From the NCBI GenBank assembly GCA_016195985.1, contig JACPYP010000016.1, positions 1-64,000 on the forward strand: a DNA stretch of 64,000 nt, in the 5' to 3' direction. This document shows positions 37,927 through 55,195 of this stretch, piece after piece. Origin of the DNA: Acidobacteriota bacterium. GTDB lineage: Bacteria; Acidobacteriota; Holophagae; Holophagales; Holophagaceae. The notes under the pieces are model-generated. The model was not told the DNA's origin. It ran no database searches and saw nothing but the letters and a program-made list of their open reading frames with translations. A program made the translations under genes and the position numbers. Numbering within the stretch: position 1 is the first letter of the stretch; each line of letters begins with the position of its first letter.

Positions 37927-39570
37927 TCAGCGCATCTGGCCGATGGGAATGAGGAAGGATTGGAGGGCCTGGGGCGGGATCTTGACGGAGGCGTGGTAGG
38001 CGCCCACCTGGATGGTGTAGGTGGCGGGGCGAGGGGCTTCGTTGTAGGCGATGAGCACCAGGTGCTTGCCGTCCTTCCTTAGGGCGGCGGTGGCATGGAG
38101 GCCGTGGGACCCTTGCCCCTGCGGAGAAGCCGTCACCTGGACGATCCGGTCTCCCGGCATGAGGTAGCGGCTGAAGTGGGCCATCACGTAATAGAGCGGG
38201 GTGATGTGCGTCTCGCCCGTGCCGGTGTCCACCATGACCGGCGCGGCGCAGAAGTTGTTTACGTGGTTCGGCCCGCCCTGCCGGTCGAGCACGATGTTCC
38301 AGTCGATCCAGCCCGCGAACCCGTGGTTGAGGCCCTCCAAGAGATCCAGGGCATAGCGGTGCACGGGCGCGTACTTGGGGTGGGCCTGCTTTTCCTCGGG
38401 CGGCGCCCAGTAGTACCCCCAGTCCGTGGCCGAGGCCGTCCACCACCAGGCTTCATTTTTCCAGCCGAGGAAATGGCCTTTGGGGGAACTGTCTTCGGTG
38501 CCGATGCCGTCGATGCACCCTTCGGTGTGGAGCAGCGCCTTGCCGGGGAACCGGGTCTGGAGCTGGTCGAGGAGTCCCGTCTGGACGCTGTTGGTGGTGC
38601 TGTACCAGTGCAGGCCCGTGCCCCAGACGTAGGCCGCGGCGGCAGGGTCGCCCAGCACCGTCTCGCTGAAGCGGAGGGCATGGGCGTCGCGGTTGTGGTC
38701 GAACTGGACGATGCGGACATGGGAAAGGCCGTGCTGCTCAAGCTGAGGCCCAAGGTGCAGCTTGATGTAGTCGCGCAGGCCCTCGGCGGTGAACTCCATG
38801 CTCTCCCACTGGCCGCCATTGCCCACTGGCTCGTTTTCCGGCGTGACGCCCCAGATGGACACGCCTTCAGCGGCATAGGCCTGCACGTACTTCACCATGT
38901 ACCGGGCGAAGGTGTCGTAGTGCTCCGGACGCAGGCTTCCTCCCCGGCCATGGCCGTACCAGTCGCGGTTGTCCTTCATCCACGCAGGGGCCGTCCAGGG
39001 GCTGGCCAGCACCTTCAACTGGGGGTTCCTGGCCAGGGCGTCCTTGATCAGGGGGAGCAGGGCGTAGGAGGGATCTTTGGCTCCAGCGAAACCGTTCTTG
39101 TCCGGAGCGATGCTGAAGTGGGCCAGGGCCGAGTCATCGGGTACATCGGCGTATGAAAAACGCCCGGTCACCGAGAAATCGCAGGCGCCAATGGGCGCGC
39201 GGGCGAGGGTGAAGCGCGCGCCATGGGGGCCGAAGAACCGGTCGAGGAGGCTCTCACGGTCCGGTTTCGCCAGGTGGGCCAGGACGAAAGCTGACGACTC
39301 GGTGAGGGCGCCCCCGATGCCTTCCAGGATCTGGAGCTGGCGCGAGGGGTCCACCGCGACGGTGAGGCCGGCTGGAGCGGCGCCCTTGCTGAACTTCAGG
39401 GGTGGCCTCTGCTTGAACCGGTCACCTCCCGCGCTGGTCTGGACGAATCCGGCCAGCCGAGGGCCCAGCAGCTTGGGCAAGCCGGGGGTCCGGGACGGCG
39501 CGCCTTCAGAGTGCAGCCAGGCTGTGGTCAGGCAGGAGAGCGCCAGGGGAACCAACCAGGGAGATGACAT
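37927..39570 (-). CDS. GH30 family glycoside hydrolase, secreted
   Basis: This 547-residue exported enzyme has a signal peptide at about 1-24 and a GH30 (beta/alpha)8 barrel with C-terminal beta sandwich. IEGIGGALTESSAF-like residues at about 82-95, LASPWTAPAWMKDN and GVTPENEP (acid/base Glu247) follow the GH30 order. LLHTEGCIDG carries the nucleophile Glu350. GH30 covers glucosylceramidases and beta-1,6-glucanases. Given GH16 and GH17 nearby, removal of beta-1,6 branches from a beta-1,3-glucan is a reasonable guess. It is last in the leftward arm of the glucan locus. Confidence 0.88.
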   Translation of the reverse strand: MSSPWLVPLALSCLTTAWLHSEGAPSRTPGLPKLLGPRLAGFVQTSAGGDRFKQRPPLKFSKGAAPAGLTVAVDPSRQLQILEGIGGALTESSAFVLAHLAKPDRESLLDRFFGPHGARFTLARAPIGACDFSVTGRFSYADVPDDSALAHFSIAPDKNGFAGAKDPSYALLPLIKDALARNPQLKVLASPWTAPAWMKDNRDWYGHGRGGSLRPEHYDTFARYMVKYVQAYAAEGVSIWGVTPENEPVGNGGQWESMEFTAEGLRDYIKLHLGPQLEQHGLSHVRIVQFDHNRDAHALRFSETVLGDPAAAAYVWGTGLHWYSTTNSVQTGLLDQLQTRFPGKALLHTEGCIDGIGTEDSSPKGHFLGWKNEAWWWTASATDWGYYWAPPEEKQAHPKYAPVHRYALDLLEGLNHGFAGWIDWNIVLDRQGGPNHVNNFCAAPVMVDTGTGETHITPLYYVMAHFSRYLMPGDRIVQVTASPQGQGSHGLHATAALRKDGKHLVLIAYNEAPRPATYTIQVGAYHASVKIPPQALQSFLIPIGQMR

Positions 39571-39616: not shown

Positions 39617-41083
39617 TCAATGGAAGTAGATGTTGTCCAGGTAGAAATGTCCGGGCGCGCTGGTGACGAACTTGAGCTGGCGGAGGGTGGTCAGGCTGAA
39701 ACCCGCTTGGTCGATGGGGATGTCGAGCTCCGCCCATGCGCCCTTCACGAGGGGGCCGGCGTCGATGGCGTATTCGGAAGAGGCGTTGATGGGGAAGACT
39801 TGCAGCGTGGTGCCGTCCGCGGTCCAGTAGCTGATGTGGAGGATGTTCTTCCCCGTGATGTCGAGGACGCCGGAATCGGTGGCGGCCCCGTTCGGAGACG
39901 AGATGTTCACGCCCTGGTAGTTCACGAGGTTCATCAGCTTGATGGTCTTTGTGGCGACGGTCGCATCCGCGATGGAACCGCCCTGGCCCCAGTTGGGATT
40001 CCAGTCGCCGACCGGGACATTGGTGTAGGTCCCGCTGCTGTTCAGCAACGAGATGACCTTGGAGGCGGGAAGGGCGGGCGCGCCCGGCAGGGTGGTGGGA
40101 GCCGTCACGGCGGGAGGAGTGAGCGGGGGGGCCGAGGCCATCGAGGTGCCGAGGAAGGAGATGGTTCCGACGTAGTAGGTCTGGTCGGCCGCGGGGACGA
40201 TTCCGAAATTCGGGAAGATGGAAACCTTGTTGTAGGTGTGCGCGAGATCCAGCGCCGGGGTGCCGCCCGTCGGGAGGGCCATGTCGAAGGTGAGTGTCTG
40301 CCAGCCCGCCGCGGCGATGGCATCCGATTCCACGGAGTGTGTCTTGTCATTGGCGTCTTCCACCTTCAATTTGAAGCTGGCGCCTGCCGCCGGCGAGTAG
40401 ACCTGCGCCGTCAGCTTTGTGTGCAAGGAGGAGAAGGGAAGGGTGCCGATCGAATCGAGGTAGCCCGCCGAGGGGGTGGTTCCGGCCCAGATTTCAGCAC
40501 CCTTCGTCTTGACGACCTGGATGACCCGGCCCGCGGGACCTCCGGCCGGCGCGCCGACCGCCGGAAAGGTGGAGGCGACGCCTCCGAAATTGGTCAGGTT
40601 GAGGGTTTGTCCGGTGGCGTTGAGATCGATCGCCGCATAGGACACGGGAGAGGCCACGGTGTTGAAGGGTTGATCCAGGGTGGCCGCAGCCACATTCAAG
40701 TTGCCCGCAAGGTCGCTGAAAGATCCTGCCGCGAGGCTGATCTGCAGGGAACCCGTGGCGCCGGAGGGGGGTGTGACCACCAGGGTGTAGTGGGTGGCGT
40801 CGACCTTGATCAAGGTGGGGGCGGCGGTCCCGTTCGTGACGGTGATGTCGCTCAGGGCGAAACTGGTGCCGATGTCCTCGCTGAAGGTGAAGGTCACGGT
40901 CACCGGGGCCGTGACCGGCGCGCTGCTTCCGGCGCTGATGGATGCGGTGGGAGCCGTGGTGTCTGCCGGCGCAGCCTGGGCCGCAGTCGAGGACTTGCCT
41001 CCGCACCCAACCAGGAAGGCTGGCACGGATGCCGCAGAGAGGGCCGCCACCAGGAGGAAGCCTCGAGTTCGATAGGCCGTCAT
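39617..41083 (-). CDS. lipoprotein with Ig-like domain and putative glycan-binding domains
   Basis: This 488-residue lipoprotein has the lipobox FLVGC (Cys about 27). An Ig-like beta sandwich spans about 42-145 (DTTAPTASISAG through GNLNVA). A jelly-roll-like central domain (NLTNFGGVASTFP through TYYVGTISFLG) follows, and a C-terminal domain starts VISLLNSSGTYTNVPVGDWNPNWG and ends HFYLDNIYFH. That C-terminal domain is shared with the lipoprotein at 45856, on the other side of the locus. No catalytic residues are evident, so it is probably a surface glycan-binding protein. GGAGAG precedes the ATG. The 46-base gap to GH30 suggests co-transcription. Confidence 0.7.
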   Translation of the reverse strand: MTAYRTRGFLLVAALSAASVPAFLVGCGGKSSTAAQAAPADTTAPTASISAGSSAPVTAPVTVTFTFSEDIGTSFALSDITVTNGTAAPTLIKVDATHYTLVVTPPSGATGSLQISLAAGSFSDLAGNLNVAAATLDQPFNTVASPVSYAAIDLNATGQTLNLTNFGGVASTFPAVGAPAGGPAGRVIQVVKTKGAEIWAGTTPSAGYLDSIGTLPFSSLHTKLTAQVYSPAAGASFKLKVEDANDKTHSVESDAIAAAGWQTLTFDMALPTGGTPALDLAHTYNKVSIFPNFGIVPAADQTYYVGTISFLGTSMASAPPLTPPAVTAPTTLPGAPALPASKVISLLNSSGTYTNVPVGDWNPNWGQGGSIADATVATKTIKLMNLVNYQGVNISSPNGAATDSGVLDITGKNILHISYWTADGTTLQVFPINASSEYAIDAGPLVKGAWAELDIPIDQAGFSLTTLRQLKFVTSAPGHFYLDNIYFH

Positions 41084-41313
41084 TTTCTCTCCTTCAATCG
41101 AATCGGCATTCCGCCGAACGGACGTGCGAATAACTGCTTAACGGTGCGCAAGGTGACGGCCGCACCAAGGGTTGAGAGCACGCAAATGGCGGGTGAGCAC
41201 CCCAAGGCTGTTCTCAAAAAAATGGTTGATCAATGTCCTTTATTCATAATCCGGGGCGATTTTTCGGCGGACCCAGGGGCGATCAAGATCCAGGGTAGGG
41301 TCCCGGGTCCGGT

Positions 41314-42969
41314 CTATTCCTTGATCCGGAGGGGCTCGGCCCAGGCATCCGGGTAGACGTGGCGGTGGGCGTGGATGGTTCTGGAGAATTTGCCGAAACG
41401 GACATCGATTCCGGCGTAGATCGACAGCATCGGAGAGCCTTCCGGAAGGACGTAGACCTCGGACAGGGTCTGCTCCTTCTGCTTCGGATCAATCCTTCGG
41501 GTGCGGGCTTCGGCCCGGTCCCAGCCTTTGTGGTGCGAGAAGGCGCATCGCAGCTCCCCGTCCAGGGCGAAGGTGCCGTCGGCGTTGCGAATGCTCAGTT
41601 CCAGCGGGACTTCCCGCTTGATCGACGGATCGGCGGCGCGGACCTGGAGGTCGAGGGTGGGCCACTGGACGGGGTCCTTGCCCGTGAGGACGATCAGGGT
41701 TTCGGTCTTGAGGAGGCGGCCGTTCGCGCCGTAGGCCTCCATGACGAACTCGCGGTCCTTGAGCCCTTCGTCGCCGAAGGAGAGATTCGCGGAGATGTAG
41801 CCGTGCGCATCCGGCGCCAGCTCCATCAGGATGCGGTCCTGGTGGACCACTCTCAGCTTCCTGACCGCGGGCTGGCAGAAGGCCTCGACAGGGACGGCGT
41901 TCTGGTAGAACTGCCGGTTCTTGGGCGAGGTGATCAAGGCCGTGTTGTACTGCTTCAGGGCATGCCAGGCGGGGCGCGGATGGCCGGTGGAATCCTTCAG
42001 GTCGCGGAAGCCGATGAAGCCGAACCACTCTTCTGCTTCGTCGTCGTGGACGGCGGGCGCGCCGGCCTTCCACCAGCCATCGGCGAAGTAGAAGGGGCAG
42101 AGGCCGGTGGCGCCGGAATCCAGGATGTCCCGGTAGTAGCGGAGCATGGCGTCGGCCTGCTCCTGCAGGCTGTTGCCGCCGTAGAGCCCGCTTCCCTTGC
42201 GGGAAACGGAGCGTCCGAACTCCGTCAGGAGGACGGGCTTGCCCTGGCCGAGGGCATCGGTGATGGCCCGTTGGGACTGGGTGAAGCCGTGGGTGAAGTT
42301 GGAGCCGTCCTTGTAGTCGTAGGCGTTCCTGCCATAGACGTCGAACAGATTCATGTCGAGCCATTCGGTGATGGCGGTGTTTCCTGAGATGGTGACCGGA
42401 ATGCCGGGGTGCAGCTGATGGATGAGATCGGCGGTTCTCGTCCAGAGTTCCCGCGTGGCCTGGGCTCCGACCTTGCGGATGTGCTCTGGCATGGGCTCAT
42501 TCATGATCAGGTAGGTGATCACGCAGTCGTATTTGCGGGAGTAGGACAGGACCCGCCTGACGAGGGCGAGGTCCTCCGCCACCACCTTCGGATCCGAGAA
42601 GTCTTCGTCGGGCTTCAGCCAGATGCCGAAAACGACCTTCAGGCCCGAGGCCTGGACCACTTTCAGTTCGGCCTCGGACATCTGGGACCAGGTGCGGATT
42701 CCGTTGAACCCCGCCTCCTTGATGCGCTTCAGGTCGCTTCGAATCTGCGCGAGATCGCGTGATGCCTCGCCGTAGGGCGCCTCTCCCGGGCGCGCTCCGG
42801 ACTCATAGCCGATGGCGTTGACGAGGAATTTGCGCCCCTTGATGTGGTACCAGCCATCCTTCAACTCGACACCGGCTTTCGGGTGCGGCGGCGGCGCAGG
42901 GACCGCCGCCGGCATCGCGCCCGCCGTCAGCGCCAGGGCGAGAAGAGCACGGATCAGTCGATTTGGCAC
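41314..42969 (-). CDS. secreted TIM-barrel glycoside hydrolase (GH2/GH5-like)
   Basis: This 551-residue exported enzyme has a signal peptide at 1-24. A short lead strand (DGWYHIKGRKFLVNAIGYES) is followed by a (beta/alpha)8 barrel with GFNGIRTWSQ, LIMNEPM (acid/base Glu158) and PVLLTEFGRS (nucleophile Glu250). This is the clan GH-A arrangement seen in the TIM domain of GH2 and in GH5. The C-terminal 200 residues are beta-rich, possibly glycan-binding. The start is a GTG with GGGGGAG upstream. A beta-glycan substrate is inferred from context. A 230-base gap separates it from the lipoprotein gene downstream. Confidence 0.75.
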   Translation of the reverse strand: MPNRLIRALLALALTAGAMPAAVPAPPPHPKAGVELKDGWYHIKGRKFLVNAIGYESGARPGEAPYGEASRDLAQIRSDLKRIKEAGFNGIRTWSQMSEAELKVVQASGLKVVFGIWLKPDEDFSDPKVVAEDLALVRRVLSYSRKYDCVITYLIMNEPMPEHIRKVGAQATRELWTRTADLIHQLHPGIPVTISGNTAITEWLDMNLFDVYGRNAYDYKDGSNFTHGFTQSQRAITDALGQGKPVLLTEFGRSVSRKGSGLYGGNSLQEQADAMLRYYRDILDSGATGLCPFYFADGWWKAGAPAVHDDEAEEWFGFIGFRDLKDSTGHPRPAWHALKQYNTALITSPKNRQFYQNAVPVEAFCQPAVRKLRVVHQDRILMELAPDAHGYISANLSFGDEGLKDREFVMEAYGANGRLLKTETLIVLTGKDPVQWPTLDLQVRAADPSIKREVPLELSIRNADGTFALDGELRCAFSHHKGWDRAEARTRRIDPKQKEQTLSEVYVLPEGSPMLSIYAGIDVRFGKFSRTIHAHRHVYPDAWAEPLRIKE

Positions 42970-43023
42970 AGGGACTCCCCCGGGCTGGGTCGGCCCCAGC
43001 CCGATACAAGGTCGATGGAACGG

Positions 43024-43869
43024 TCAAGAGCGGCGGTAGACGCGAACGTAGTCCACCAGCATCTGCTGGGGGAAGGTGGTGGAGCCGTCCGGAGCCCCGG
43101 GCCAGTTCCCTCCCACCGCCAGATTCAGGATGAGGAAGAAGGGATGGTCGAAGACCCAAAGGGATCCGTTGGCAGGAAGGTCCGCGGGCGTGCGCGTTGC
43201 GAAGAGGGCGCCGTCCACGTAGAAACGCATCTGGGTGCCCTCCCACTCCACGGCGTAGAGGTGGAAGTCGTCGGCGAATTTCCCGGCGGCCAGGGTCTTG
43301 GCCGCAGAGATGCCGTTTCCTCCGCTGTAGCCGGGGCCGTGGATGGTGGCGTGCACCGTGGCGGGTTCCTTGCCGACGTTCTCCATGATGTCGATCTCGC
43401 CGCAGGCGGGCCATCCGTTGGATCCGAGGTCGTTCCCCAGCATCCAGAAGGCGGGCCAGAGCCCTTGTCCGGCCGGGATCTTGATGCGGGCCTCGAAGCG
43501 CCCGCTCGACTGGGCGAAGAGGCCCTGGGTCTTGACGCGGCCGGAGGTGTAGTTCCGGGCGATGCCGTCGGTGCCCGTGTAGGTCTCCTTGACCGCCGTG
43601 ATGACCAGGTTCCCGCCGTGGATCGAGACATTCTGAGGGCGGCCGGTGTAGGTCTGAAGCTCGGCGTTGCCCCATCCGCCGCCGCCGAGATCGAAGGCCC
43701 ATTTGGCGGGATCGGGGGCGCTGCCATCAGCCCCACTGAATTCATCGCTCCAGCTCAGCGCCCAGGCGCCCGTGGGGTTGGCCGGAACGGCTGTCTGAGG
43801 CGTCGAGGATCCGCCGCCGCAGCCCAGGCAGAGGGTGAAGGCGAAGGTGAGGAGGCTGGGCGATCTCAT
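43024..43869 (-). CDS. GH16 family beta-glucanase (laminarinase-like) lipoprotein
   Basis: This 281-residue lipoprotein has its lipid Cys at 17 (CLGCGG). A single GH16 jelly roll runs from about 36 to the end. The strand WSDEFSGADG, GWGNAELQTYT and the active-site strand GEIDIMENVG (nucleophile Glu158, Asp160, acid/base Glu163) are classic for endo-beta-1,3-glucanases. The closing LVDYVRVYRR also matches. It would cut laminarin-type glucan at the cell surface. AAGGAAG precedes the ATG. It lies 117 bases downstream of the regulator gene, with a candidate operator in between. Confidence 0.93.
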   Translation of the reverse strand: MRSPSLLTFAFTLCLGCGGGSSTPQTAVPANPTGAWALSWSDEFSGADGSAPDPAKWAFDLGGGGWGNAELQTYTGRPQNVSIHGGNLVITAVKETYTGTDGIARNYTSGRVKTQGLFAQSSGRFEARIKIPAGQGLWPAFWMLGNDLGSNGWPACGEIDIMENVGKEPATVHATIHGPGYSGGNGISAAKTLAAGKFADDFHLYAVEWEGTQMRFYVDGALFATRTPADLPANGSLWVFDHPFFLILNLAVGGNWPGAPDGSTTFPQQMLVDYVRVYRRS

Positions 43870-43929
43870 GCGTGGTTCTTCCTTATGGCCAGGGCGGACC
43901 CCCCAGCATGCCCCTCACAAAAGAGGTGA

Positions 43930-43962
43930 TGGAATAGTCTTTTTTGGTAAACAGGTATCGGT
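43930..43962. promoter_or_regulatory. candidate operator upstream of the GH16 gene
   Basis: An ATAGTCTTTTTTGG stretch at about 43936 resembles, in plus orientation, the reverse complement of the 45519-45535 region (ATGGTCTTTTTTCG) upstream of the regulator. Shared poly-T blocks could be a binding site of the XylR-like regulator. Evidence is only this one resemblance. Confidence 0.25.
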
Positions 43963-43986
43963 TTTCCTTTAATCCCGGGCCCGGAT

Positions 43987-45165
43987 TTAACGCCCGGAAA
44001 GGCCTGCGCGGTAAAGGGCCGGGGTGGTGCCCGTTTCACGTTTGAAGAAACGGCAGAAATAGGTGGCGGAGTTGAATCCGCATTCGCGGCCCACCTCCTC
44101 GACGGACAAGTTCGAGTTCTCGAGGAGGCGCATGCCCCGGTTGAGCCGGACCCTGAGCACCTCTCCGGCCACGGGTCGCCCGAGGTGCTTCTTGAAGAGG
44201 TTGTCCAGGGTGGAGCGGGAGCAGCCCGTCAACTCGCAGACCTGCTCGACCGAGATGCCACGGCAGGCCCGGTCGCGGATGATCCGGGAGGCGGCGACGA
44301 CCGTGGGGTTCTCGGCCGTGGTGATATCCGTGGACTGGCGGTCGACAACCCGCAGGGGAGGATGGTGGTAGAGCCGGGGCTCGACGGTTTTGCCGTCCAG
44401 AATGCTGATGAGCATTTCCGAAGCCAGCAGGCCGATGCCCTCGGTATCGGGGGCGATGCTCGTCAGGGTGGGACGGCAGAGGCGGCAGAGGATGTCGTCA
44501 TTGTCGACGCCGATGACTGAGATCTCGCCCGGCATGGAGATTCCAAGGTCGCGGCTGGCCGTGATGATCTGCTGGCCCCGGGTGTCGTTGCAGGCCAGGA
44601 TGGCCACCGGCTTCGGAAGCTGGGACAGCCAGACCGCCAGGGCCTGTTCGTATTCAAGGCCCCGCATTTCCCGGAACTGGAGGTTGATCGAGGCGGACAC
44701 CTTGGGCGGCGGCTGGTAGATGCTGATCTCGTGGCCGCGAGCCGCGAAGATGCGCCTGAATGCGTCGGATCGCCGGTCGGAGAAGAAGATGCCGGGGTAT
44801 CCGCAGAAGGCGAAGTTGATGAATCCGGCCTGGGTGAAGAAGTCCGCGGCGAGCTGGGCCACGATCCCTGCATCGGTGTCGATCACCGGCGTGTCCGGAC
44901 AATTGCCTTCTCCCTGCACATCCACGATGGGAACGCCCAGCGCCTTGATCTGGCGTCCCAGGTCCGCATTGGTGACGAACCCGATGATTCCGTCGATGTG
45001 GCCCTTCTTGAGCCACGAGGGGAGTTTCATGAACTCCGCCCGCTCATACGGAAAGATCAGGAGATCCTCCCGTTCGAGCGCATAGGTGGCCACCCCCCTG
45101 CAAATGCCTCGGCTGTAACCACCTGCGGCGGGGACCAGGAGGGCGATGTGGCGGATCGACGGCAT
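43987..45165 (-). CDS. XylR-like transcriptional regulator (LacI-type sensor plus AraC DNA-binding domain)
   Basis: This 392-residue regulator joins a periplasmic-binding-protein sensor to an AraC-family DNA-binding domain. The sensor (about 1-275) starts IALLVPAAGGYSRGICRGV and contains HIDGIIGF, AILACNDTRGQQ and ISVIGVDNDDILC, as in the LacI/XylR sugar sensors. The AraC part (about 290-392) has ISVEQVCELTGCSRSTLDNLFKKHLG and LSVEEVGRECGFNSATYFCRFFKRETG. XylR-type proteins activate sugar genes when the sensor binds a sugar. Placed between two divergent glycan-degrading arms, it probably controls both. The inducer is probably a glucan oligosaccharide (inference). Confidence 0.9.
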   Translation of the reverse strand: MPSIRHIALLVPAAGGYSRGICRGVATYALEREDLLIFPYERAEFMKLPSWLKKGHIDGIIGFVTNADLGRQIKALGVPIVDVQGEGNCPDTPVIDTDAGIVAQLAADFFTQAGFINFAFCGYPGIFFSDRRSDAFRRIFAARGHEISIYQPPPKVSASINLQFREMRGLEYEQALAVWLSQLPKPVAILACNDTRGQQIITASRDLGISMPGEISVIGVDNDDILCRLCRPTLTSIAPDTEGIGLLASEMLISILDGKTVEPRLYHHPPLRVVDRQSTDITTAENPTVVAASRIIRDRACRGISVEQVCELTGCSRSTLDNLFKKHLGRPVAGEVLRVRLNRGMRLLENSNLSVEEVGRECGFNSATYFCRFFKRETGTTPALYRAGLSGR

Positions 45166-45855
45166 GAGAAAGGATCATACTCTTCCCCTATTTCACGGTA
45201 ATTCTGATTTCCTGCGGCCGGGATCGGCTTGCCAAGGTTTCATCGCGGTTTTGGGGGCCCCGGTCCCCTGAGATGCAGGCGGGGGCTCGATCCAGAACGC
45301 AGGGCCGGCGCAGGCCGTCCGGGCTGCGAATCCGGCGGGCGGATTTCCGGGCTGGATGGTGACGAAGCGCACAAAGCTGGAAAGGGCCGCGGATCTGCTG
45401 CCGCTCATTCCGGTCAGCCGCCAGGCTGAATTCGCATAATGCTGTTGATAGGTCGTTAAATCCGGTCAATAGATCTGTCTGGACAAGGAATATCTCGCCA
45501 AAAAAACACATGTGAAAACGAAAAAAGACCATATACAAGCGCAATTTTAGAAATCAGGCTTGCCCAGTCTTCTTTGAACCAAGTCGCCGGGCAGCCCTCA
45601 GGATTCCGATCTCACAGGGCCCCCCGCTCGCAAGCCGGATTGACCCCCTCCTCCTGGGCGGGGACAGATGAATGCCCATCGATGGATCCCTCGCGCCTGA
45701 CCGCGCGGGTGGGCATGGGTGAGCGCAGGTGGACCTAGGCTAGGGTGAGCCAGGGTGAGGTTGTCTGGCCCTGGAACGATTTAAAAATCAATGAAAACAA
45801 TCTTTAGGTTTCAAGAAATCCCATGCGAAAGACCTTCCTAAAAAAGGAGAGAACC
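45166..45855. promoter_or_regulatory. divergent intergenic region of the glucan locus
   Basis: These 690 bases separate the regulator from the rightward arm and hold no convincing gene. Visible features are a CACATGTG palindrome (45507-45514) within an A-rich tract, the AAAAAAGACCAT block at about 45521, and AGGGTGAG twice at 10-base spacing (45742, 45752), with a third GGGTGAG at 45717. Both promoters of the locus and regulator sites are expected here. Base content near 45240-45420 is coding-like, but the frames there match nothing recognisable. Confidence 0.45.
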
Positions 45856-47466
45856 ATGACGGCCCATCGATTCCGAGGCGTATTGGCGCTTCTGGCTGCC
45901 TTCACCATGGCCCTGTTGAGTGGTTGCGGCGGGAAATCCCGTCCCGACACTTCGTCCTCATTCATCTCCATCGCGCCGGTGGCCTGGACCTTGTACCCCG
46001 GCCAGTCAGAGCAGCTCGTGGTGACCCGCCACAATTCAGACGGCTCCAGCTCCGTGGTGAGTTCCGGCGTCGTTTTCGCGGCTTCGGCCGATGCCGTGGC
46101 CTCCGTCAGCGCCACTGGCCTGATGACGGGAGTCAGCGTGGGCACCGGCACCGTGACGGCCACGGTGGGCGACAAGACCGCGGACGCCGTGGTGAAGGTG
46201 ACACCGCTGTTCGCGGGCCCTGTCTTCACCGATGACTACGCGGCGGGAACGACCTTCGTGCCCTTCGGAGGCTCCGTCAATGACCTCGCGGTGGACCGGC
46301 TGGAGCACCACTCCTGGTCGGCCTCGCTGAAGGTGACGGTGCCCGCCGCGGGGTATACGGGCGGCGCTCTGAAGGCCGCCTCGCCCCAGAACATGTCACC
46401 CTACAACGCCGTGACGTTCTGGGCCAAGGCGAGCAAGGCGGTCACGCTTGCGACGGCGGGTTTCGGAGACAGCGCCACAGGCGATGTGCGCTTCAAGGCG
46501 GAGGTGGAGTCCCTCGCGCTCACGACTGAATGGGCCAAGTTTGTCATGCCCATCCCGGTTCCCGGGAAGCTCAGCGAGAATGCGGCCCTCTTCCATTTCG
46601 CGCAGGGCAGTTCAGGATCGGCCTATGCCATCTGGTTCGACGACATCCAGTACGAATACCTGGGAGCCTCGGCCCTTGGCGCGCCCGCCACTGCGGCGGT
46701 AGGCTGGCGCCCGATCAGCGTCGATCTCGGCAAGACCGCGGCGCTTCCCAGCGGGAACGGCAGCGGCAACACCGCGACCTACAGCCTTCCCGCCGTGAAG
46801 CTCGTCAACCTCGGCATCGGCTACTTCGACATCACCTCCGACGCGCCGGCCATCGCCACGCCGAACCTCGACGGCACCGTGAAGGGCTTGGCCTTCGGGG
46901 CCGCCCATCTCACCGCCAAGCTGGGCGGCCTCTCCGCCGGGACCGGCACCGTCACGGTGGCTCCCGCCAGCCCGACATCGGCGCCACCTGCTCCCACGGC
47001 GTCTGCGGGCAACGTGATCTCGCTGCTTTCGAAGGCCTACACGAACAGTCCGGTCGATACCTGGAATGCCAGCTGGGGCGTGGTCGGCGGTTTCTCGGAG
47101 GCGGTCATCGCCGGCGACAACATGAAGAAATACGCGAACCTCGGCTATGCAGGCATCGAGTTCGTCAGCCACCAGATCGACGCGGCGCAGATGGGCTACT
47201 TCCACATCGACATCTGGACGCCGGATATGACGGCCTTCCACGTGAAGCTCGTCGATTTCGGCCCCGACGGCGCCTACGGGGGAGGTGACGACACCGGTGT
47301 GGAGATCTCGGTTCCCGTGTCCGCCCTGCGGCAGTGGCAGAGCATCGACTTGCCGCTGAGCTCGTTCACCGGGCTGAAGCTCAAGAACCAGGCCCAGATC
47401 GTGATCGTGGGCGAGCCTTACGCGAACGGCACGGTCTTCATCGACAACGTCTACTACCACAAGTGA
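45856..47466 (+). CDS. lipoprotein with BIG2-like and putative glycan-binding domains
   Basis: This 536-residue lipoprotein has the lipobox LLSGC (Cys about 24). A BIG2-like domain follows (APVAWTLYPGQSEQLVVTRH through GTGTVTATVGDKTAD). A central jelly-roll-like domain includes FDDIQYEYLG. A second BIG2-like strand set ends TGTVTVAP. The C-terminal domain starts NVISLLSKAYTNSPVDTWNASWG and ends FIDNVYYHK. That last domain is paralogous to the end of the lipoprotein at 39617-41083. Likely a surface glycan-binding protein. ATG 45856 has GGAGAG upstream. The frame's earlier ATG at 45823 is less well placed. A strong hairpin terminator-like stem follows. Confidence 0.72.
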   Translation: MTAHRFRGVLALLAAFTMALLSGCGGKSRPDTSSSFISIAPVAWTLYPGQSEQLVVTRHNSDGSSSVVSSGVVFAASADAVASVSATGLMTGVSVGTGTVTATVGDKTADAVVKVTPLFAGPVFTDDYAAGTTFVPFGGSVNDLAVDRLEHHSWSASLKVTVPAAGYTGGALKAASPQNMSPYNAVTFWAKASKAVTLATAGFGDSATGDVRFKAEVESLALTTEWAKFVMPIPVPGKLSENAALFHFAQGSSGSAYAIWFDDIQYEYLGASALGAPATAAVGWRPISVDLGKTAALPSGNGSGNTATYSLPAVKLVNLGIGYFDITSDAPAIATPNLDGTVKGLAFGAAHLTAKLGGLSAGTGTVTVAPASPTSAPPAPTASAGNVISLLSKAYTNSPVDTWNASWGVVGGFSEAVIAGDNMKKYANLGYAGIEFVSHQIDAAQMGYFHIDIWTPDMTAFHVKLVDFGPDGAYGGGDDTGVEISVPVSALRQWQSIDLPLSSFTGLKLKNQAQIVIVGEPYANGTVFIDNVYYHK

Positions 47467-47506: not shown

Positions 47507-47661
47507 ACCTTTCGGTCGAACGCAAGGTCAGCCCGCGCGATTCCCGGCGGTCGATGCAGGGGTCGGGCCTCGCAGGATTGAGTGATCCACAAGCGATTCC
47601 AGGTTGTTGTCAACGGATTGTCCAGAGGCCATGGGCGCTGGGTATCAATGGGGAGGAAGTC

Positions 47662-48459: not shown

Positions 48460-51400
48460 ATGAACATGCGCAACACACTCCAACTCTCCACCCTCGCGGT
48501 GATGCTGGCCGGTGGTGTGAGCCTGGTCGCGCAGACGACCACCGGAGCTCTGCGTGGCCAAGTGACGGACGAGGCTGGGAAGCCCGTGGCCAATGCCCGC
48601 GTCTCGCTGGAGAGCACAGCCCTCTTCCAGACGCGGGTCATCCTGACCGATGCTGACGGGACCTACCGCGCCCTCCTGCTCCCCGTGGGCAACTACACGA
48701 TCCGCGTGAGCGCCGAAGGGCTGCTCGGCAAGACCGCCAACGATGTCCGCGTGGGCGTGGGTTCCAACCTGGCCATGTCCTTCGTCCTGAAGCCCACGCA
48801 GGCCGCCGCCGCCGTGGTCGAAGTCGTCGGAACCACGGCCGCCGAGGCCAAGACCAGCGACAAGATCTCCGTCAACTACTCCGCCGATCAGCTGCTGAAG
48901 CTGCCCGTCTCCATGCAGGGATTCGATTCCATCACCAACATCGCCCCTGGCGTGGCCGGCTACGGAACAGCCGCCCGGGTCCGCGGGTCGGACACGAACC
49001 AGGTCCTCTACAGCGTCGATGGCATCAACGTGAAGGACGATTCCGGCAAGGCGGCCTCTCTCTACTCCCCCCTGCCTGATTCCATCGAGGATGTGCAAGT
49101 GGTCGCCTCCGGGCTGAACGCCCGCAACGGCCTGGTCAGCGGCGGCCAGGTCAACATGGTGACGAAGAGCGGCTCCAACACCTTCGAAGGCACTGTCCGG
49201 GCCAACATGTCCAGGGCCTCGATGGGCGCCGACTACTACCTCACCAACGCGGCGAACAACAGCAACCTCCTTCGCGAGGACCTCACCCACACGACCGACA
49301 TCACGATGAGCGGCCCCATCGTCAAGGATCGGCTCTGGTTCACGCTGGGGACCCGCTTCACGCCTTCCCAGGCCACGACGGGCCTCCTTGGCTACACGGT
49401 GCTGGGCATCCGGGAAGGGCAGACCTCGCCCATCCCCTGGAACACGGTCCGGACCATGCTCCATCCCATGTCCACCTATGGCCTGAATCCCGGCGTGGAC
49501 GCCGTGGTCAACGCCGGCGCCGGCGCTGGCTACGCCATCGACACGGAACAGGCGGGCACCCAGCTCAGCTCTTCCATCCGCTTCCAGAAGATCGAAGGGA
49601 AGCTGACCGGGATGATCTCGCCGAACCACGCCATGAGCTTCACCTACCTGACGGAGAAGACGACTCAGGGGAACGTCCAGGGGCAGAAGAACGCCGACCC
49701 CTGGGAGGGCAACATTCTCCGCGGCATCGGCGAGATGAAGACCGAAACCAAGGCCTACACGCTGTCCTGGAACGGCATCCTGGCGCCGAACTGGACCATC
49801 GAGGCGCGCACGACCTACGCGGCCATTTCAGCCAACGATGTGCCCAACCCGAACCCTGGCGTGGCCGTCTCGGGCTACTTCTCGACGGGGGATCCGACGC
49901 TGCGGCTCCGGGGCGAGAGCGGCCCCCATTCCTGGCTCGCCGACGAGGGCTACAACTACGGCCCCCTGCTCACCAACATGAGCACCTACATCAACCCGGA
50001 AAAACGGGGGAACCAGACGGCCACCGTGAACGTCAAGACCATCCAGGAATTCCACGGCAACCACGACATCGACATGGGAGGCGAGCGCGTCGCCACCCTC
50101 TACAACTTCGGCCGCACCAAGTTCGGCAACCGCGGCGTGTTCACGGGCGGATGGGAGCGGAATGCCGCCACGGGGCAGTACCTCTATCCCGTCTTCCGCC
50201 GGGGCGCCCAGGGGACCACGCCTTCGGAAATCCTCCAGATCGGGCCTGGCGAGAACCCGTCGGCGAACGGGTGGACCGCCTGGGATTCCATGCCCAACGG
50301 CCTGGGCACGCAGTCGCCCTTTCTCCATTGGGAGGCCATCCGCGGCCCCAGCGCCCACATGGAGCGGTTTTTCGACGACGCGGGCGACTCGAAGAACAGC
50401 ACCACTTCGTTCTGGCTGAACGACAACTGGACCATCAATCCCCAGTGGAATGTCATGGTGGGCGCCCGCATGAACAAGCTGGTCATGGAGGACCAGGGCG
50501 GCAACCACCTGCACGACATGAACATCTTCGAGCCCCGGTTCATGGTCAAGTTCAATCCGGATGGCAACAACAAGGAGGTGTTTTCCTTCTCCGCCGCCAA
50601 GTTGGCTTCGGCCTATTCGGATGCCGTCGCCAACAATTTCCGGGGGAACGCCTGGGAGGTTCGCACGGTCCACCTCTGGAGCGGCGCGGGGCTGAATCCG
50701 GGCATCGCGCAGCCAGGGTTCGACACGGCGGCTTCGGCCTCGGATGCCCCCACGGGCACCTACAACGGCTACACCTACACGGGCCAGAATATGCACGGTG
50801 TCCGCTGGGTGGACTACGCCACGCTGACGGACCCGAGCAACTACGGCCCGGCCTACGACATGCTTGACGCGCGCCAGACCTACCTTTCACCCGGCCTCAA
50901 AGCCCCCTACGCCATTGAGCTGAGCCTCGGTTATCAGCGGAACTACGATTCCGGCTACTTCCGCATCAATGGGACGCGCCGCACCTACAAGGACAACATC
51001 GTCGGCCCGATCCATGATTACGGCATGGCTTCCATGGTGCACATGGTGAGCCCGGCGCCGGGCGATCCGCTGCGCATCTGGAAGCAGGCCACGGTCTGGA
51101 AGAATTCGGAGTTCGACCGGATCTACACCGGGCTTGAAATGGTATTCCAGAAACAGCTGTCCGCCCGGTGGAGCATGATGGGCTCGTACACCTGGGATCA
51201 GTCGACCGGCACCAACGACCTGGACTACTACAGCTACAAGACGCTCCGCGAAAAGCTCCTGACTCCGGCGCAGCAGCGGGCTGCTGTGGGGCAGGGCGTC
51301 CTCAGCAGGAACCAGATCGCCCACCTGTTCCTGACCTACACGCTGCCCGTGGGAAAGGGCAACATCTCCTTCTCCGTCAAGGCGGATACGTGGCAGGGTG

Positions 51401-51885
51401 GCGTCATCCAGGCCCAGGGCTGGACGGACTACCGCACCCTTCCGGGCTTCGCGGCCCTGCAGTTGCCGAGCACGATCGGCGGCGAGCGCGTCACCGACGT
51501 CGACCAGCGGACGGGGAACTGGCAGACCTTCTTCCCCACCTACTATGGCGACATGGGCTCCTTCAAGACCGGCGTGGACTACTACCAGATCGGCGCCAAG
51601 CTCCAGTGGGACATTCCGATCGGGGTGGGCAAGGTGCGGATGATCGGCTACGTGACCTTGGACAACCTTTTCAATCACATGCTCATGACCAACGTGTACG
51701 GCTACTTCACCGGGGACTCGCCGAATCAGACCAACAATGTGGCGCCCGGCAGTGCCATGGCCCTCTTCTACAGCAACCGCTACTACGGTCAGACACCAGG
51801 GGACACCGGAGCCAAGTACGGCGACTACAACATGGGGTACGGCGGCCGCCGCGTCAGCGATTTCAGCTTCGGGTTCAAGTTCTAA
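48460..51885 (+). CDS. Oar-like TonB-dependent receptor with N-terminal carboxypeptidase-like domain
   Basis: This 1141-residue outer-membrane receptor has a signal peptide to about residue 25. A carboxypeptidase-regulatory-like domain at about 28-112 (GALRGQVTDEAGKPVANARVSL) precedes a plug of about 130-240 with VRGSDTNQVLYSVDGINVKD and VVASGLNARNGLVSGGQVNMVTKSG. A 22-stranded barrel ends in the typical terminal Phe (SDFSFGFKF). This is the Oar/Acidobacteria type. No SusD partner is adjacent, so it differs from Bacteroidetes SusC/D pairs. It would import glucan oligosaccharides into the periplasm. GGAG precedes the ATG. Confidence 0.9.
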   Translation: MNMRNTLQLSTLAVMLAGGVSLVAQTTTGALRGQVTDEAGKPVANARVSLESTALFQTRVILTDADGTYRALLLPVGNYTIRVSAEGLLGKTANDVRVGVGSNLAMSFVLKPTQAAAAVVEVVGTTAAEAKTSDKISVNYSADQLLKLPVSMQGFDSITNIAPGVAGYGTAARVRGSDTNQVLYSVDGINVKDDSGKAASLYSPLPDSIEDVQVVASGLNARNGLVSGGQVNMVTKSGSNTFEGTVRANMSRASMGADYYLTNAANNSNLLREDLTHTTDITMSGPIVKDRLWFTLGTRFTPSQATTGLLGYTVLGIREGQTSPIPWNTVRTMLHPMSTYGLNPGVDAVVNAGAGAGYAIDTEQAGTQLSSSIRFQKIEGKLTGMISPNHAMSFTYLTEKTTQGNVQGQKNADPWEGNILRGIGEMKTETKAYTLSWNGILAPNWTIEARTTYAAISANDVPNPNPGVAVSGYFSTGDPTLRLRGESGPHSWLADEGYNYGPLLTNMSTYINPEKRGNQTATVNVKTIQEFHGNHDIDMGGERVATLYNFGRTKFGNRGVFTGGWERNAATGQYLYPVFRRGAQGTTPSEILQIGPGENPSANGWTAWDSMPNGLGTQSPFLHWEAIRGPSAHMERFFDDAGDSKNSTTSFWLNDNWTINPQWNVMVGARMNKLVMEDQGGNHLHDMNIFEPRFMVKFNPDGNNKEVFSFSAAKLASAYSDAVANNFRGNAWEVRTVHLWSGAGLNPGIAQPGFDTAASASDAPTGTYNGYTYTGQNMHGVRWVDYATLTDPSNYGPAYDMLDARQTYLSPGLKAPYAIELSLGYQRNYDSGYFRINGTRRTYKDNIVGPIHDYGMASMVHMVSPAPGDPLRIWKQATVWKNSEFDRIYTGLEMVFQKQLSARWSMMGSYTWDQSTGTNDLDYYSYKTLREKLLTPAQQRAAVGQGVLSRNQIAHLFLTYTLPVGKGNISFSVKADTWQGGVIQAQGWTDYRTLPGFAALQLPSTIGGERVTDVDQRTGNWQTFFPTYYGDMGSFKTGVDYYQIGAKLQWDIPIGVGKVRMIGYVTLDNLFNHMLMTNVYGYFTGDSPNQTNNVAPGSAMALFYSNRYYGQTPGDTGAKYGDYNMGYGGRRVSDFSFGFKF

Positions 51886-54106: not shown

Positions 54107-54230
54107 CGCGAACGGAATAGAATCCGCCCGCCGGACTTCCGGCCAGCCCTTGTCCGGGTGGTTCAGGGCCTCGCGGGCATTGATTTGGGCGAAGCAGGCG
54201 GGCCTCGTCCTGATCATCCGGAGCTTCGCC

Positions 54231-55193
54231 ATGGGCGGAGAGGGCCTCCCCCCCGTCGACCTGGCCAAGCAGCAATGGAACGGCAACGCCATCTGCTACT
54301 CCGGCTATCGCCTGGGCCAGCATCCGGACCGGCAAGCCTTCCCGACCGAAGCCCAGGTTCTCGATGATCTCCGGATTCTGGAGCGGAACTGGCGCCTCAT
54401 CCGCGTGTATGGGGCGGACCGGCACAGCCGCGATGTCCTTGCAGTCATCCGGAAGCATCGGCTGAATCTGCGCGTGATGCTCGGGATCTGGCTGAGCGGG
54501 AAGCCCGGGAAGGAGGCCGAGAACCAGCGCCAGATCGCCTACGGCATCCATCTGGCCAAGGCGTTCCCGGAAGCCGTTGCCGCGGTGAACGTGGGCAACG
54601 AGGCCCTGGTGTCCTGGTCTGATCACCGGATGCCGGAAGAGGCCATGGTCGAATGTGTCCGGCAGGTCAAGGGTTCTGTGGCCTGCCCTGTCACGGTGGC
54701 CGACGACTTCCTCTACTGGATTCAGCCCGGCAACAAGCTGCTTCCCCTCATCGACTTCATCACCCTGCACAGCTACCCCCTTTGGGGTCATCAGGACATC
54801 GAAGAAGGGCTTCCCTCCACCGTCTCGAAATACGACCAGGTGCGGAAGCTCTATCCCGGGAAGACCATCGTGTTCGGCGAAGTGGGTTGGGCCTCCTACA
54901 CGGAACCCCATGCCCAGCATGTGCCGGGGGCAGGCAGCGAAAGCAAGCAGAAGCGCTACTACGAGGAGATCAACGCCTGGGCGAAGAACCAAGGCGTGAC
55001 GGCCTTTTTCTTCGAGGCCTTTGACGAGCCCTGGAAGGGCCAGGGGACGGAAGGGCACTGGGGCGTGTTTTCCGTGGACCGGAAAGCGAAGCCCGTCGTG
55101 CGGGAGGCCTTTCAGGACCTCACGCACGACCGGACCGCCTCTCCAGGCCGCGAGCCGCTGCCGGGCCAGATCCACAAGGCGGACGGGAATTGA
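54231..55193 (+). CDS. GH17-like beta-1,3-glucan hydrolase, no signal peptide
   Basis: About 320 residues of a GH17-type (beta/alpha)8 enzyme. It shows NAICYSGYRLGQ, WRLIRVYGADRH, AVNVGNEALVSW (acid/base Glu) and IVFGEVGWASYTE (nucleophile Glu), in GH17 order. No export signal is seen, so it would act in the cytoplasm on imported oligosaccharides. The start is uncertain. ATG 54231 has GGAG 7 bases upstream. An in-frame ATG at 54096 adds 45 residues that overlap the symporter gene and do not look conserved. It is followed by the phosphorylase gene with an overlapping or abutting start. Confidence 0.8.
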   Translation: MGGEGLPPVDLAKQQWNGNAICYSGYRLGQHPDRQAFPTEAQVLDDLRILERNWRLIRVYGADRHSRDVLAVIRKHRLNLRVMLGIWLSGKPGKEAENQRQIAYGIHLAKAFPEAVAAVNVGNEALVSWSDHRMPEEAMVECVRQVKGSVACPVTVADDFLYWIQPGNKLLPLIDFITLHSYPLWGHQDIEEGLPSTVSKYDQVRKLYPGKTIVFGEVGWASYTEPHAQHVPGAGSESKQKRYYEEINAWAKNQGVTAFFFEAFDEPWKGQGTEGHWGVFSVDRKAKPVVREAFQDLTHDRTASPGREPLPGQIHKADGN

Positions 55194-55195
55194 TC

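What the first reader, a model, noticed from the sequence alone, without database searches (positions are those of the whole stretch)
39617..47466. Paralogous lipoproteins on both arms with a shared C-terminal domain
The proteins at 39617-41083 and 45856-47466 have different N-terminal Ig-like parts. They share a C-terminal block starting VISLL-YTN-PV-DWN-WG and ending with a F-(L/I)DN-(I/V)Y-(F/Y)H motif. This domain may be a new carbohydrate-binding module that takes the place of SusD/SGBP.
Basis: partly seen in the sequence, partly recalled or inferred. Interest (0 to 1): 0.5.

Follow-up and report, generated by a model that had tools for sequence, protein, structure and literature searches.

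The report
Beta-glucan-binding surface lipoproteins, no SusD
Two lipoproteins in a bacterial beta-glucan gene cluster share an unnamed sugar-binding-type domain that is common in the glucan-capturing surface proteins of another phylum, and here they seem to work without the usual partner protein SusD.

Summary
Lipoproteins A (39617-41083, -) and B (45856-47466, +) share a ~150-residue C-terminal domain (DOM; 34% identity, BLASTP E 1e-16) with no Pfam or NCBIfam match in either. Its predicted fold (pLDDT 95) is a CBM30/11/29/8-type beta-sandwich.

DOM is not private to this locus: a capped scan found 557 encoding stretches; most of the 80 loci kept are Bacteroidota. In 36 of 81 DOM proteins there it lies between SusD and GH16. 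DOM is remotely homologous to a solved laminarin-binding CBM (8QX6, 'X584'; hhalign 96.5%), and A's middle domain belongs to the 8QX6 family. In the lipoprotein gene beside the regulator, relatives carry five X584 and no DOM (G018) or four DOM and no X584 (G042).

Among 77 Holophagales genomes, all 13 with DOM have GH149 beta-1,3-glucan phosphorylase; none has a SusD match. In a sister genus A and B modules are fused in one protein.

Best reading: SGBP-B-like proteins that capture beta-1,3-glucan for GH16/GH17/GH30 and a non-SusC TonB receptor. 'Takes the place of SusD' is half right: SusD is absent here, but DOM accompanies SusD in many Bacteroidota. Binding is untested.

The parts
39617..41083 (-). 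Lipoprotein A (488 aa): leader and lipobox, Big_12, X584-type CBM, DOM
   Evidence: ORF; Pfam; domain map
40682..40963 (-). A residues 41-134: Big_12 Ig-like domain (spacer, inferred)
   Evidence: E 2.4e-16
40154..40603 (-). A residues 161-310: member of the family of PDB 8QX6 (laminarin-binding CBM X584)
   Evidence: homologues; profile A7, which includes this copy, finds 8QX6 at E 2.5e-30
39620..40066 (-). A residues 340-488: shared C-terminal domain (DOM), short subtype
45856..47466 (+). Lipoprotein B (536 aa): leader and lipobox, Big_2, CBM30-like domain, second Big_2-like, DOM
45964..46197 (+). B residues 37-114: Big_2 Ig-like domain
   Evidence: E 9.3e-13
46219..46686 (+). B residues 122-277 (BM): unnamed beta-sandwich, CBM30-like predicted fold, conserved in Bacteroidota and others in front of DOM
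   Evidence: model pLDDT 79.8, CBM30 Z 14.0
46711..46968 (+). B residues ~286-371: second Big_2-like domain
   Evidence: profile built from relatives; not reported by Pfam as a separate stretch in B
46999..47463 (+). B residues 382-536: shared C-terminal domain (DOM), long subtype
   Evidence: model pLDDT 95.0, pTM 0.89
37927..39570 (-). GH30 enzyme beside A; best NCBIfam model endo-1,6-beta-glucanase, below its cut-off
41314..42969 (-). Predicted glycoside hydrolase, unclassified, between A and GH16
   Evidence: GH72 E 0.018, GH5 E 0.062; weak similarity to the GH2-type enzyme next to BM-DOM lipoproteins of Bacteroidota (E 6.2e-6)
43024..43869 (-). GH16 enzyme (laminarinase type inferred)
   Evidence: E 2.4e-25
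43987..45165 (-). Regulator: periplasmic-binding-type sensor domain and AraC HTH (XylR-like)
48460..51885 (+). TonB-dependent receptor with CarboxypepD_reg and Plug; no SusC/RagA match
   Evidence: (no NCBIfam match at E 0.001)
52619..54106 (+). GPH-type sugar:cation symporter
54096..55193 (+). GH17-like enzyme
   Evidence: E 1.7e-6, 28.3 bits against a cut-off of 28.2
55190..58639 (+). GH149 1,3-beta-glucan phosphorylase
   Evidence: 1567 bits against a cut-off of 1150

Best explanation
A and B are outer-membrane surface lipoproteins that capture beta-1,3-glucan (laminarin, callose or fungal-wall type), i.e. SGBP-B-like proteins. DOM is a carbohydrate-binding beta-sandwich, remotely related to the laminarin-binding CBM of PDB 8QX6. 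Ig-like domains act as spacers holding two binding modules each: X584-type + DOM in A, CBM30-like BM + DOM in B. The captured chain is presented to the GH16/GH30/GH17 enzymes; oligosaccharides enter through the adjacent non-SusC TonB receptor, cross the inner membrane by the GPH symporter, and are phosphorolysed by GH149. Shown here: homology, predicted fold, gene context, co-occurrence with GH149, exchange of modules, gene fusion, no SusD match. Inferred: that DOM binds, its ligand, surface exposure, and hand-over to the receptor.
For: Fold: model pLDDT 95.0, pTM 0.89; Foldseek's top ten are CBM30, CBM11 and CBM28 (E 2.6e-6 to 6.4e-5); VIA-align Z 13.6 CBM8, 13.2 CBM30, 13.0 CBM29, 12.8 CBM11, 11.9 8QX6. 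Remote homology to the 8QX6 family: hhalign 96.5%, E 9e-10. Same proteins: in Zunongwangia (L067) the gene between SusD and GH16 encodes PKD, 8QX6-type CBM (1.6e-47), DOM. Context: of the 80 loci kept, 51 have GH16 and 62 have at least one of GH16/GH3/GH17/GH30/GH149; 36 of 81 DOM proteins lie between SusD and GH16; in 20 control stretches from three flavobacterial genomes, 1 had a marker, 0 had GH16 or SusD. B's architecture BM-Ig-DOM recurs beside GH16, GH149, GH30, symporter and GH17 in Saprospiraceae L104 and Bacteroidales L079, and beside most of these in L114, with no SusC/SusD match in the stretches held. GH16 fused to DOM in Emticicia. Co-occurrence: 13 of 77 Holophagales genomes have DOM, all 13 among the 16 with a GH149 match; Fisher p 3e-12, not corrected for kinship. 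Module exchange in the lipoprotein gene divergent from the XylR-like regulator: 5 X584 + 0 DOM in G018, 4 DOM (last one cut by the contig end) + 0 X584 in G042, 2 X584 + 1 DOM in G044, BM + 1 DOM in the window's B. Fusion: in L035-L037 and L033 one ~1190-aa protein holds BM, DOM and three X584 domains, with no separate A gene found in L035-L037. Literature: BuSGBP-B of a Bacteroides beta-1,3-glucan PUL binds laminarin while its SusD homologue does not (PMC7157763, passages); CHU_1279, SGBP-B-like with a CBM11-like C-terminal fold, binds cellulose (PMC12016534, passages).
Against: No binding data exist for DOM. A CBM fold does not prove binding: the N-terminal CBM-like domain of CHU_1279 showed no obvious cellulose binding; a complex I assembly factor scores as high (7zkq, Z 13.0), and 3 of 60 DOM copies hit Pfam CIA30, a complex I assembly family, weakly (best E 0.0037). 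DOM finds no PDB chain convincingly by sequence (best CBM E 0.061). 13 of 80 loci show no beta-glucan marker, and the DOM proteins of two of them, L050 and L096, carry a type IX secretion tail. The 80 loci are the best of at least 557 stretches found with motifs of the long subtype, so they are a biased sample. The G018/G042/G044 loci are arranged differently from the window's, so the shared slot rests on the neighbouring regulator alone. X584 and DOM may bind different parts of a glucan.
Confidence: 0.72

Rival explanations
1. DOM is a CBM-fold spacer or protein-protein domain that does not bind glycan; the X584 domain in A and the BM domain in B do the binding.
For: Non-binding beta-sandwich domains are known in these systems: the PFAM13004 pair of BuGH16 did not bind, and the N-terminal CBM-like domain of CHU_1279 showed no obvious binding. 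Similar folds occur in proteins that are not glycan binders (7zkq, Z 13.0).
Against: G042's lipoprotein and the flavobacterial L070 lipoprotein have DOM copies but no separate X584 or BM domain, so DOM is the main candidate binder there. DOM occurs in up to six tandem copies (L114). Positions Y14, W22, W26, W73, W113 (B-domain numbering) are aromatic in 97-100% of 60 rows, though some may be core residues.
Confidence: 0.15
2. DOM binds a different glycan from the 8QX6 CBM, such as mixed-linkage beta-1,3/1,4-glucan, beta-1,6 side chains or cellulose; the locus targets mixed or branched glucan.
For: CBM30 and CBM11 (CtCBM11 solved with mixed-linkage tetrasaccharide) are among the closest folds. 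The GH30 is nearest to an endo-1,6-beta-glucanase model, below its cut-off. BfSGBP-B bound both laminarin and mixed-linkage glucan.
Against: GH149 co-occurs with DOM in all 13 genomes, and DOM is exchanged with 8QX6-type modules in the lipoprotein gene beside the regulator.
Confidence: 0.2
3. DOM is a structural replacement for SusD, forming a lid on the TonB receptor.
For: No SusD match in 77 genomes, and B lies one gene from the TonB receptor.
Against: SusD is an alpha-helical fold (established knowledge); DOM is predicted almost all beta. In Bacteroidota DOM proteins often lie beside SusD. The receptor has no SusC match.
Confidence: 0.07

Closest known systems
PDB 8QX6, 'Novel laminarin-binding CBM X584' from a PKD domain-containing protein (I recall it as CBM102 of Christiangramia forsetii, Zuehlke et al. 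2024; paper not held, not read)
   Same: A's middle domain belongs to this family by profile (E 2.5e-30). DOM is homologous to the family (hhalign 96.5%), has a similar predicted fold (Z 11.9) and occurs in the same proteins.
   Different: The DOM profile does not list 8QX6 up to E 10. DOM has its own signature (VISL..Y.N..W...W, D-W-T, Q, DN-YF) and its own subtypes.
SGBP-B of Bacteroides beta-1,3-glucan PULs (BuSGBP-B; 7KWB/7KWC from B. thetaiotaomicron)
   Same: Lipoprotein type, beta-1,3-glucan locus, CBM-like modules. 7KWB is found by fold for DOM (E 5.0e-4) and BM (Z 11.9). B has the BM-Ig-DOM architecture of a Bacteroides finegoldii protein beside GH16.
   Different: No sequence match to these solved SGBP-Bs was listed. 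The window locus has no SusC or SusD match.
CBM11 (Clostridium thermocellum Lic26A-Cel5E) and CBM30
   Same: Closest folds for DOM and BM. 9 of 60 DOM copies hit Pfam CBM_11, best E 9.4e-4; one relative with three DOM copies (L050) passes the CBM_11 cut-off as a whole protein (40.9 bits against 27), with no single stretch passing.
   Different: The window copies do not hit CBM_11. Identity in the structural alignments to CBM11 and CBM30 is 11-18% for DOM.
SusCD-type polysaccharide utilization loci for laminarin (Formosa, Flavobacterium, Bacteroides)
   Same: GH16, GH17, GH30, GH149 and an MFS-type transporter with binding lipoproteins; Formosa laminarin loci list GH16, GH17, GH3, GH30 and GH149, and a figure legend names PKD and MFS proteins (PMC6246565, passages).
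   Different: No SusD match in the order; the TonB receptor does not match TIGR04056; regulator is XylR-like.

Membership tests
8QX6 / X584 laminarin-binding CBM family | Sequence-profile match to the founding structure: A middle domain | tested here: met
   Profile A7, which includes the window copy, finds 8QX6_A at 2.5e-30. A alone as single sequence found no PDB chain at E 1 or better.
8QX6 / X584 laminarin-binding CBM family | Sequence-profile match to the founding structure: DOM | tested here: not met
   Profile A5 lists 9 distinct sequences up to E 10, 8QX6 not among them. Remote homology only: hhalign 96.5%.
8QX6 / X584 laminarin-binding CBM family | Binds laminarin | not testable with these tools
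   Needs protein.
CBM11 (Pfam CBM_11) | Score above the Pfam cut-off for the window proteins | tested here: not met
   No CBM_11 row for A or B at E 1 or better; 9 of 60 DOM copies weakly; whole protein L050 above the cut-off.
CBM11 (Pfam CBM_11) | CBM11-type beta-sandwich fold | tested here: met
   1v0a Z 12.8, rmsd 3.4, 140 aligned, on a predicted model.
CBM30 (for B middle domain) | Family-level sequence match | tested here: inconclusive
   Profile A6 against 1wmx E 0.0039; fold Z 14.0, rmsd 2.8-3.1, on a model of pLDDT 79.8.
SGBP-B (functional class) | Lipobox-bearing secreted lipoprotein | tested here: met
   Lipobox motif by pattern at the start of both proteins; no signal-peptide predictor was run.
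SGBP-B (functional class) | Encoded in a glycan locus with the outer-membrane transporter | tested here: met
   B is one gene upstream of the TonB receptor; A between GH30 and the predicted GH.
SGBP-B (functional class) | Partner SusC/SusD pair | tested here: not met
   No TIGR04056 match; PF14322 and PF07980 in 0 of 77 genomes.
SGBP-B (functional class) | Binds the locus glycan at the cell surface | not testable with these tools
   Needs protein and cells.
SusD | SusD Pfam domains | tested here: not met
   No SusD family for A or B; DOM model almost all beta.

The most novel reading that the evidence does not exclude
There is a beta-1,3-glucan uptake system without SusC or SusD, of which the Holophagaceae locus is an example: multi-CBM lipoproteins (a pair, or in a sister genus one fused chain) built from domains shared with Bacteroidota SGBPs feed a TonB receptor of another family. 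The same BM-DOM lipoprotein with GH16, GH149, GH30, GH17 and symporter occurs in Saprospiraceae and Bacteroidales loci where no SusC/SusD match was seen in the stretches held. DOM is an uncatalogued CBM family, interchangeable with the 8QX6 family, found in contigs of five phyla.
Probability: 0.5. Interest if true: 0.6.

Novelty: new variant of a known kind. Interest (0 to 1): 0.5.

Why it matters
SGBPs often escape annotation because their binding modules have no family name. DOM would give a name and a predicted ligand class to a module encoded in at least 557 stretches of species genomes, many of them in laminarin-type PULs. The Holophagaceae locus would show that SGBP-B-type modules can work with a non-SusC TonB receptor and no SusD, which makes it a natural test of what SusD and SGBP-B each contribute.

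Tried and rejected
Searches of the PDB with single sequences of DOM, protein A and B's middle domain gave only chance matches or none; only profiles were informative. The DOM profile's best row was a DDR kinase (E 0.048), and it also listed ribosomal proteins (E about 1), which I take as chance; CBM11 stood at E 0.061-0.07.

A recent duplication of A and B was considered and rejected: the DOM copies lie in different subtypes, each with Bacteroidota rows, and the middle domains are of different families. The tree is midpoint-rooted, its bootstrap had not quite settled, and two rows (L044, L045) are long.

An operator for the regulator was looked for between the divergent arms; one imperfect inverted repeat and one short palindrome were found and not followed.

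Christiangramia forsetii, which I recall as the source of 8QX6, was sought among 296 genomes related to L067 and no near-identical copy was found (best 56% identity), so I could not look at its own SGBP.

Literature: ten searches. None listed a paper that names CBM102 or 8QX6 (asked by name; one gave one unrelated review, 97 none). The 20 of 81 papers listed include no title on a Holophagaceae laminarin locus. Of seven papers I saw passages: PMC13188888 (it notes that PKD and hypothetical genes in laminarin loci may bind carbohydrate), PMC6246565, PMC12016534, PMC7157763, PMC10076258, PMC13357471, PMC11345257 (it ascribes laminarin binding to Maribacter GH16 domains by homology to BfSGBP-B). 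These searches cover open-licence PMC papers only; CAZy and dbCAN are not on hand, so I cannot say that DOM has no CBM number.

Rows dropped or limited: A5 uses 45 representatives of 185 full-length DOM copies plus 15 of the 24 copies of A2. A7 uses 31 of 50 non-redundant X584-type rows, leaving out rows overlapping DOM copies and several Holophagaceae near-copies. A8 uses 9 of 16 BM rows. The census covers the 80 loci kept of at least 557 stretches, 81 of their 83 DOM proteins (L063 and L111 fell out where longer overlapping ORFs were preferred), and detects SusC, SusD, GH16 and GH3 by similarity to single proteins, so counts are lower bounds. The 20 control stretches were placed by hand at regular steps in three genomes that carry X584 or DOM proteins themselves.

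Corrections after checking: I first described the G018 and G042 lipoproteins as lying in A's place; searches show them divergent from the regulator, which is B's place, though by sequence they match A best.

Full report
What is there. The window lies in a Holophagaceae genome (Acidobacteriota): G068, which the tool places in the same family, has a 7682-base contig with DOM that matches in length the one titled Holophagaceae bacterium UBA706, and the two DOM copies are identical in the tree (lineage). Two divergent arms flank an intergenic stretch (45166-45822). Left arm, minus strand: XylR-like regulator, GH16, an unclassified predicted glycoside hydrolase, lipoprotein A, GH30. Right arm, plus strand: lipoprotein B, a 291-aa protein without a family match, a TonB receptor, a 195-aa protein without an NCBIfam match, a GPH sugar symporter, a GH17-like protein, and GH149 1,3-beta-glucan phosphorylase (1567 bits against a cut-off of 1150). 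I read this as a beta-1,3-glucan locus.

Check of the observation. A and B share a C-terminal domain (DOM): 34% identity in the domain alignment, BLASTP E 1e-16, score 155 against 31.1 +/- 5.5 in 1000 shuffles. The Ig-like domains differ (Big_12 and Big_2). In addition the leaders resemble each other, and each protein has a middle domain of its own family, AM in A and BM in B.

Family of DOM. Neither A nor B gives a Pfam or NCBIfam match over DOM. The genome has two copies. In the order Holophagales 13 of 77 genomes have it; in a sample of 297 Acidobacteriota genomes 4 have it, all of this family. DOM occurs singly or in up to six tandem copies. In a tree of 60 copies A-type and B-type DOM fall on two sides of a supported branch (100/97), each side with Bacteroidota rows; Holophagaceae form one group on each side. 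I infer that both subtypes are older than their presence in Holophagaceae, and that horizontal transfer is likely given the patchy presence in two genera.

Fold. AlphaFold2 on B's DOM with 43 rows gives pLDDT 95.0 and pTM 0.89, almost all beta. Foldseek's best solved structures are CBM30, CBM11 and CBM28. VIA-align gives Z 13.6 (CBM8, 7t7y, rmsd 2.6, 135 aligned), 13.2 (CBM30), 13.0 (CBM29), 12.8 (CBM11), and 11.9 for 8QX6 (rmsd 3.0, 133 aligned). Rows within 1 of each other are ties, and the list also holds a complex I assembly factor at 13.0; 3 of 60 DOM copies hit the complex I assembly family CIA30 weakly, against 9 of 60 for CBM_11 and 2 of 60 for SGBP_B_XBD. The fold alone does not prove binding. 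B's middle domain, with only 9 rows, gives pLDDT 79.8 and resembles CBM30 most (Z 14.0; profile E 0.0039).

Link to a known laminarin binder. The profile of A's middle domain and its relatives finds PDB 8QX6, titled 'Novel laminarin-binding CBM X584', at E 2.5e-30 (title, match). A's middle domain is therefore a member of that family by sequence. DOM and this family are remote homologues: hhalign probability 96.5%, E 9e-10; DOM and BM score 81%, E 1.2e-5. They share proteins: the Zunongwangia lipoprotein L067, between SusD and GH16, reads PKD, 8QX6-type (1.6e-47), DOM. Of six other stretches fetched from relatives of L067 for their 8QX6-type domains, one protein has two 8QX6-type and four DOM, one has three and two, and four have two to four 8QX6-type only. 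I recall that 8QX6 was named CBM102 from a Christiangramia forsetii SGBP with four such modules; that paper is not held and I did not read it.

Context across species. In Flavobacterium micromati (L070) the order is Y_Y_Y/LuxR-type regulator, SusC, SusD, lipoprotein with two DOM copies, GH16, GH3, GH16. Of 80 loci, 51 have GH16, 43 SusD, 43 SusC, 32 GH3, and 62 at least one of GH16, GH3, GH17, GH30, GH149; 36 of 81 DOM proteins lie directly between SusD and GH16. Among 20 control stretches of 16.4 kb from three flavobacterial genomes, 1 carried a marker (GH149, GH17, GH30 and symporter together) and none GH16 or SusD. 13 of the 80 loci had no marker. The window's TonB receptor had no match at E 1e-10 in the 80 loci.

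A second locus type. B's architecture (BM, Ig-like, DOM) recurs outside Holophagaceae, and there it keeps other company: a ~1045-aa GH2-type enzyme, the BM-DOM lipoprotein, GH16, then GH149, GH30, symporter and GH17 in some order (L104 Saprospiraceae, L079 Bacteroidales; in both the DOM part is split over two reading frames); a similar, partly shorter set in L114; GH2-type, BM-DOM, GH16 in L045, L044 and L061, the last with a GH149 match at its end. The ~1045-aa enzymes are homologous to each other; two of three scanned pass the Pfam GH2 TIM-barrel cut-off, and two of three used as queries resemble the window's unclassified hydrolase weakly (best E 6.2e-6). No SusC or SusD match was seen in L104, L079, L114, L061 or L066 within the stretches held. 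The window locus thus looks like the acidobacterial form of this gene set, with A added and a TonB receptor of its own.

Three tests inside Holophagales. (1) Co-occurrence: all 13 genomes with DOM are among the 16 of 77 with a GH149 match (12 above the cut-off); Fisher p 3e-12 without correction for kinship. Of the three with GH149 but no DOM, G028 and G061 are assemblies of about 310 and 330 contigs with partial matches. (2) The third, G018, has divergent from its XylR-like regulator a 1024-aa lipoprotein-like protein with five 8QX6-type domains and no DOM, about 10 kb from GH149. In the same position G042 has a protein with four DOM copies, the last cut by the contig end, and no 8QX6-type domain; G044 has two 8QX6-type and one DOM; the window has B (BM, DOM). 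The module types thus replace each other beside the same kind of regulator; the rest of these loci is arranged differently from the window. (3) Fusion: in G065, G066 and G070, and G068 on a short contig, one protein of about 1190 aa holds BM, DOM and three 8QX6-type domains; in the one scanned with Pfam (L036) Big_2 stands near the start and Big_12, A's Ig-like type, between DOM and the 8QX6-type domains. In the first three no separate A gene is found in the locus. A and B therefore very likely act together.

SusD. SusD-like_3 and SusD_RagB match 0 of 77 genomes of the order, while the control search rings in a Bacteroides. The window's receptor has no SusC/RagA match, whereas the flavobacterial SusC scores 798 bits. 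So the locus seems to work without SusC and SusD. But DOM accompanies SusD in many Bacteroidota, so it is not tied to SusD's absence. In a Bacteroides beta-1,3-glucan locus the SGBP-B binds laminarin while the SusD homologue does not (PMC7157763, passages), which shows that SGBP-B can supply capture.

Most likely mechanism. Surface lipoproteins A and B hold beta-1,3-glucan by several sites on Ig-like stalks; GH16 and the GH30/GH17 enzymes cut it; oligosaccharides pass the TonB receptor and the symporter and are phosphorolysed by GH149. Steps shown: gene content, homology, predicted fold, exchange, fusion, co-occurrence. Steps inferred: binding by DOM, ligand, surface exposure, and contact with the receptor. 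Confidence 0.72 that DOM binds a beta-glucan and A/B act as SGBPs; about 0.15 that DOM is a non-binding spacer.

Novelty. The protein kind (SGBP with CBM-like modules) is known, and one of A's modules belongs to a family with a solved laminarin-binding structure. New here, as far as the held sources show, are the unnamed DOM family and its link to that family, its exchange with it beside one kind of regulator, and the setting without SusC and SusD. I could not check CAZy.

Noticed in passing
41314-42969 (-): Predicted glycoside hydrolase with only sub-threshold GH72/GH5 signals, kept near GH16 in several Holophagaceae relatives and weakly similar to a ~1045-aa GH2-type enzyme beside BM-DOM lipoproteins in Bacteroidota; may be an unclassified enzyme.
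   Followed up: partly
L061 2866-6009, L104 2430-5573, L044 7971-11105 and homologues: A conserved ~1045-aa GH2-type enzyme, weakly or not recognised by Pfam, next to BM-DOM lipoproteins; in L050-L052 and L056 a homologue lies in the same stretch as a DOM protein.
   Followed up: partly
47554-48429 (+) and 51910-52497 (+): Two proteins without family match flank the TonB receptor (47554: Pfam and NCBIfam; 51910: NCBIfam only) and are conserved with it in relatives.
   Followed up: partly
L035 8658-12221; L036 7763-11323; L037 8367-11930: Modules of A and B fused into one ~1190-aa protein in a sister genus.
   Followed up: yes
L158 (G018), 3211017-3214091 of its contig: Five tandem 8QX6-type CBMs, no DOM, beside the regulator: a natural module swap.
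   Followed up: yes
L070 8534-10177: The flavobacterial GH16 after the DOM lipoprotein has about 200 residues between its PKD-like and catalytic domains without a Pfam family and without DOM, X584 or BM match.
   Followed up: no
L050 7386-9743 and L096 6432-11543: DOM proteins with a type IX secretion tail and no beta-glucan marker nearby; possibly secreted binders.
   Followed up: partly
L044 (NZ_OY725931.1): A Bacteroides finegoldii record labelled plasmid that carries rpsA and a glucan locus; looks like a chromosomal piece.
   Followed up: no
45315-45359: Imperfect inverted repeat (20-nt arms, 70% complementary) between the divergent arms, possible operator.
   Followed up: no
43987-45165 (-): Regulator joining a periplasmic-binding-type sensor with an AraC HTH; a homologue lies in a fetched stretch with the lipoprotein in 12 of 13 DOM genomes (not in G045's contig) and in G018.
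   Followed up: partly
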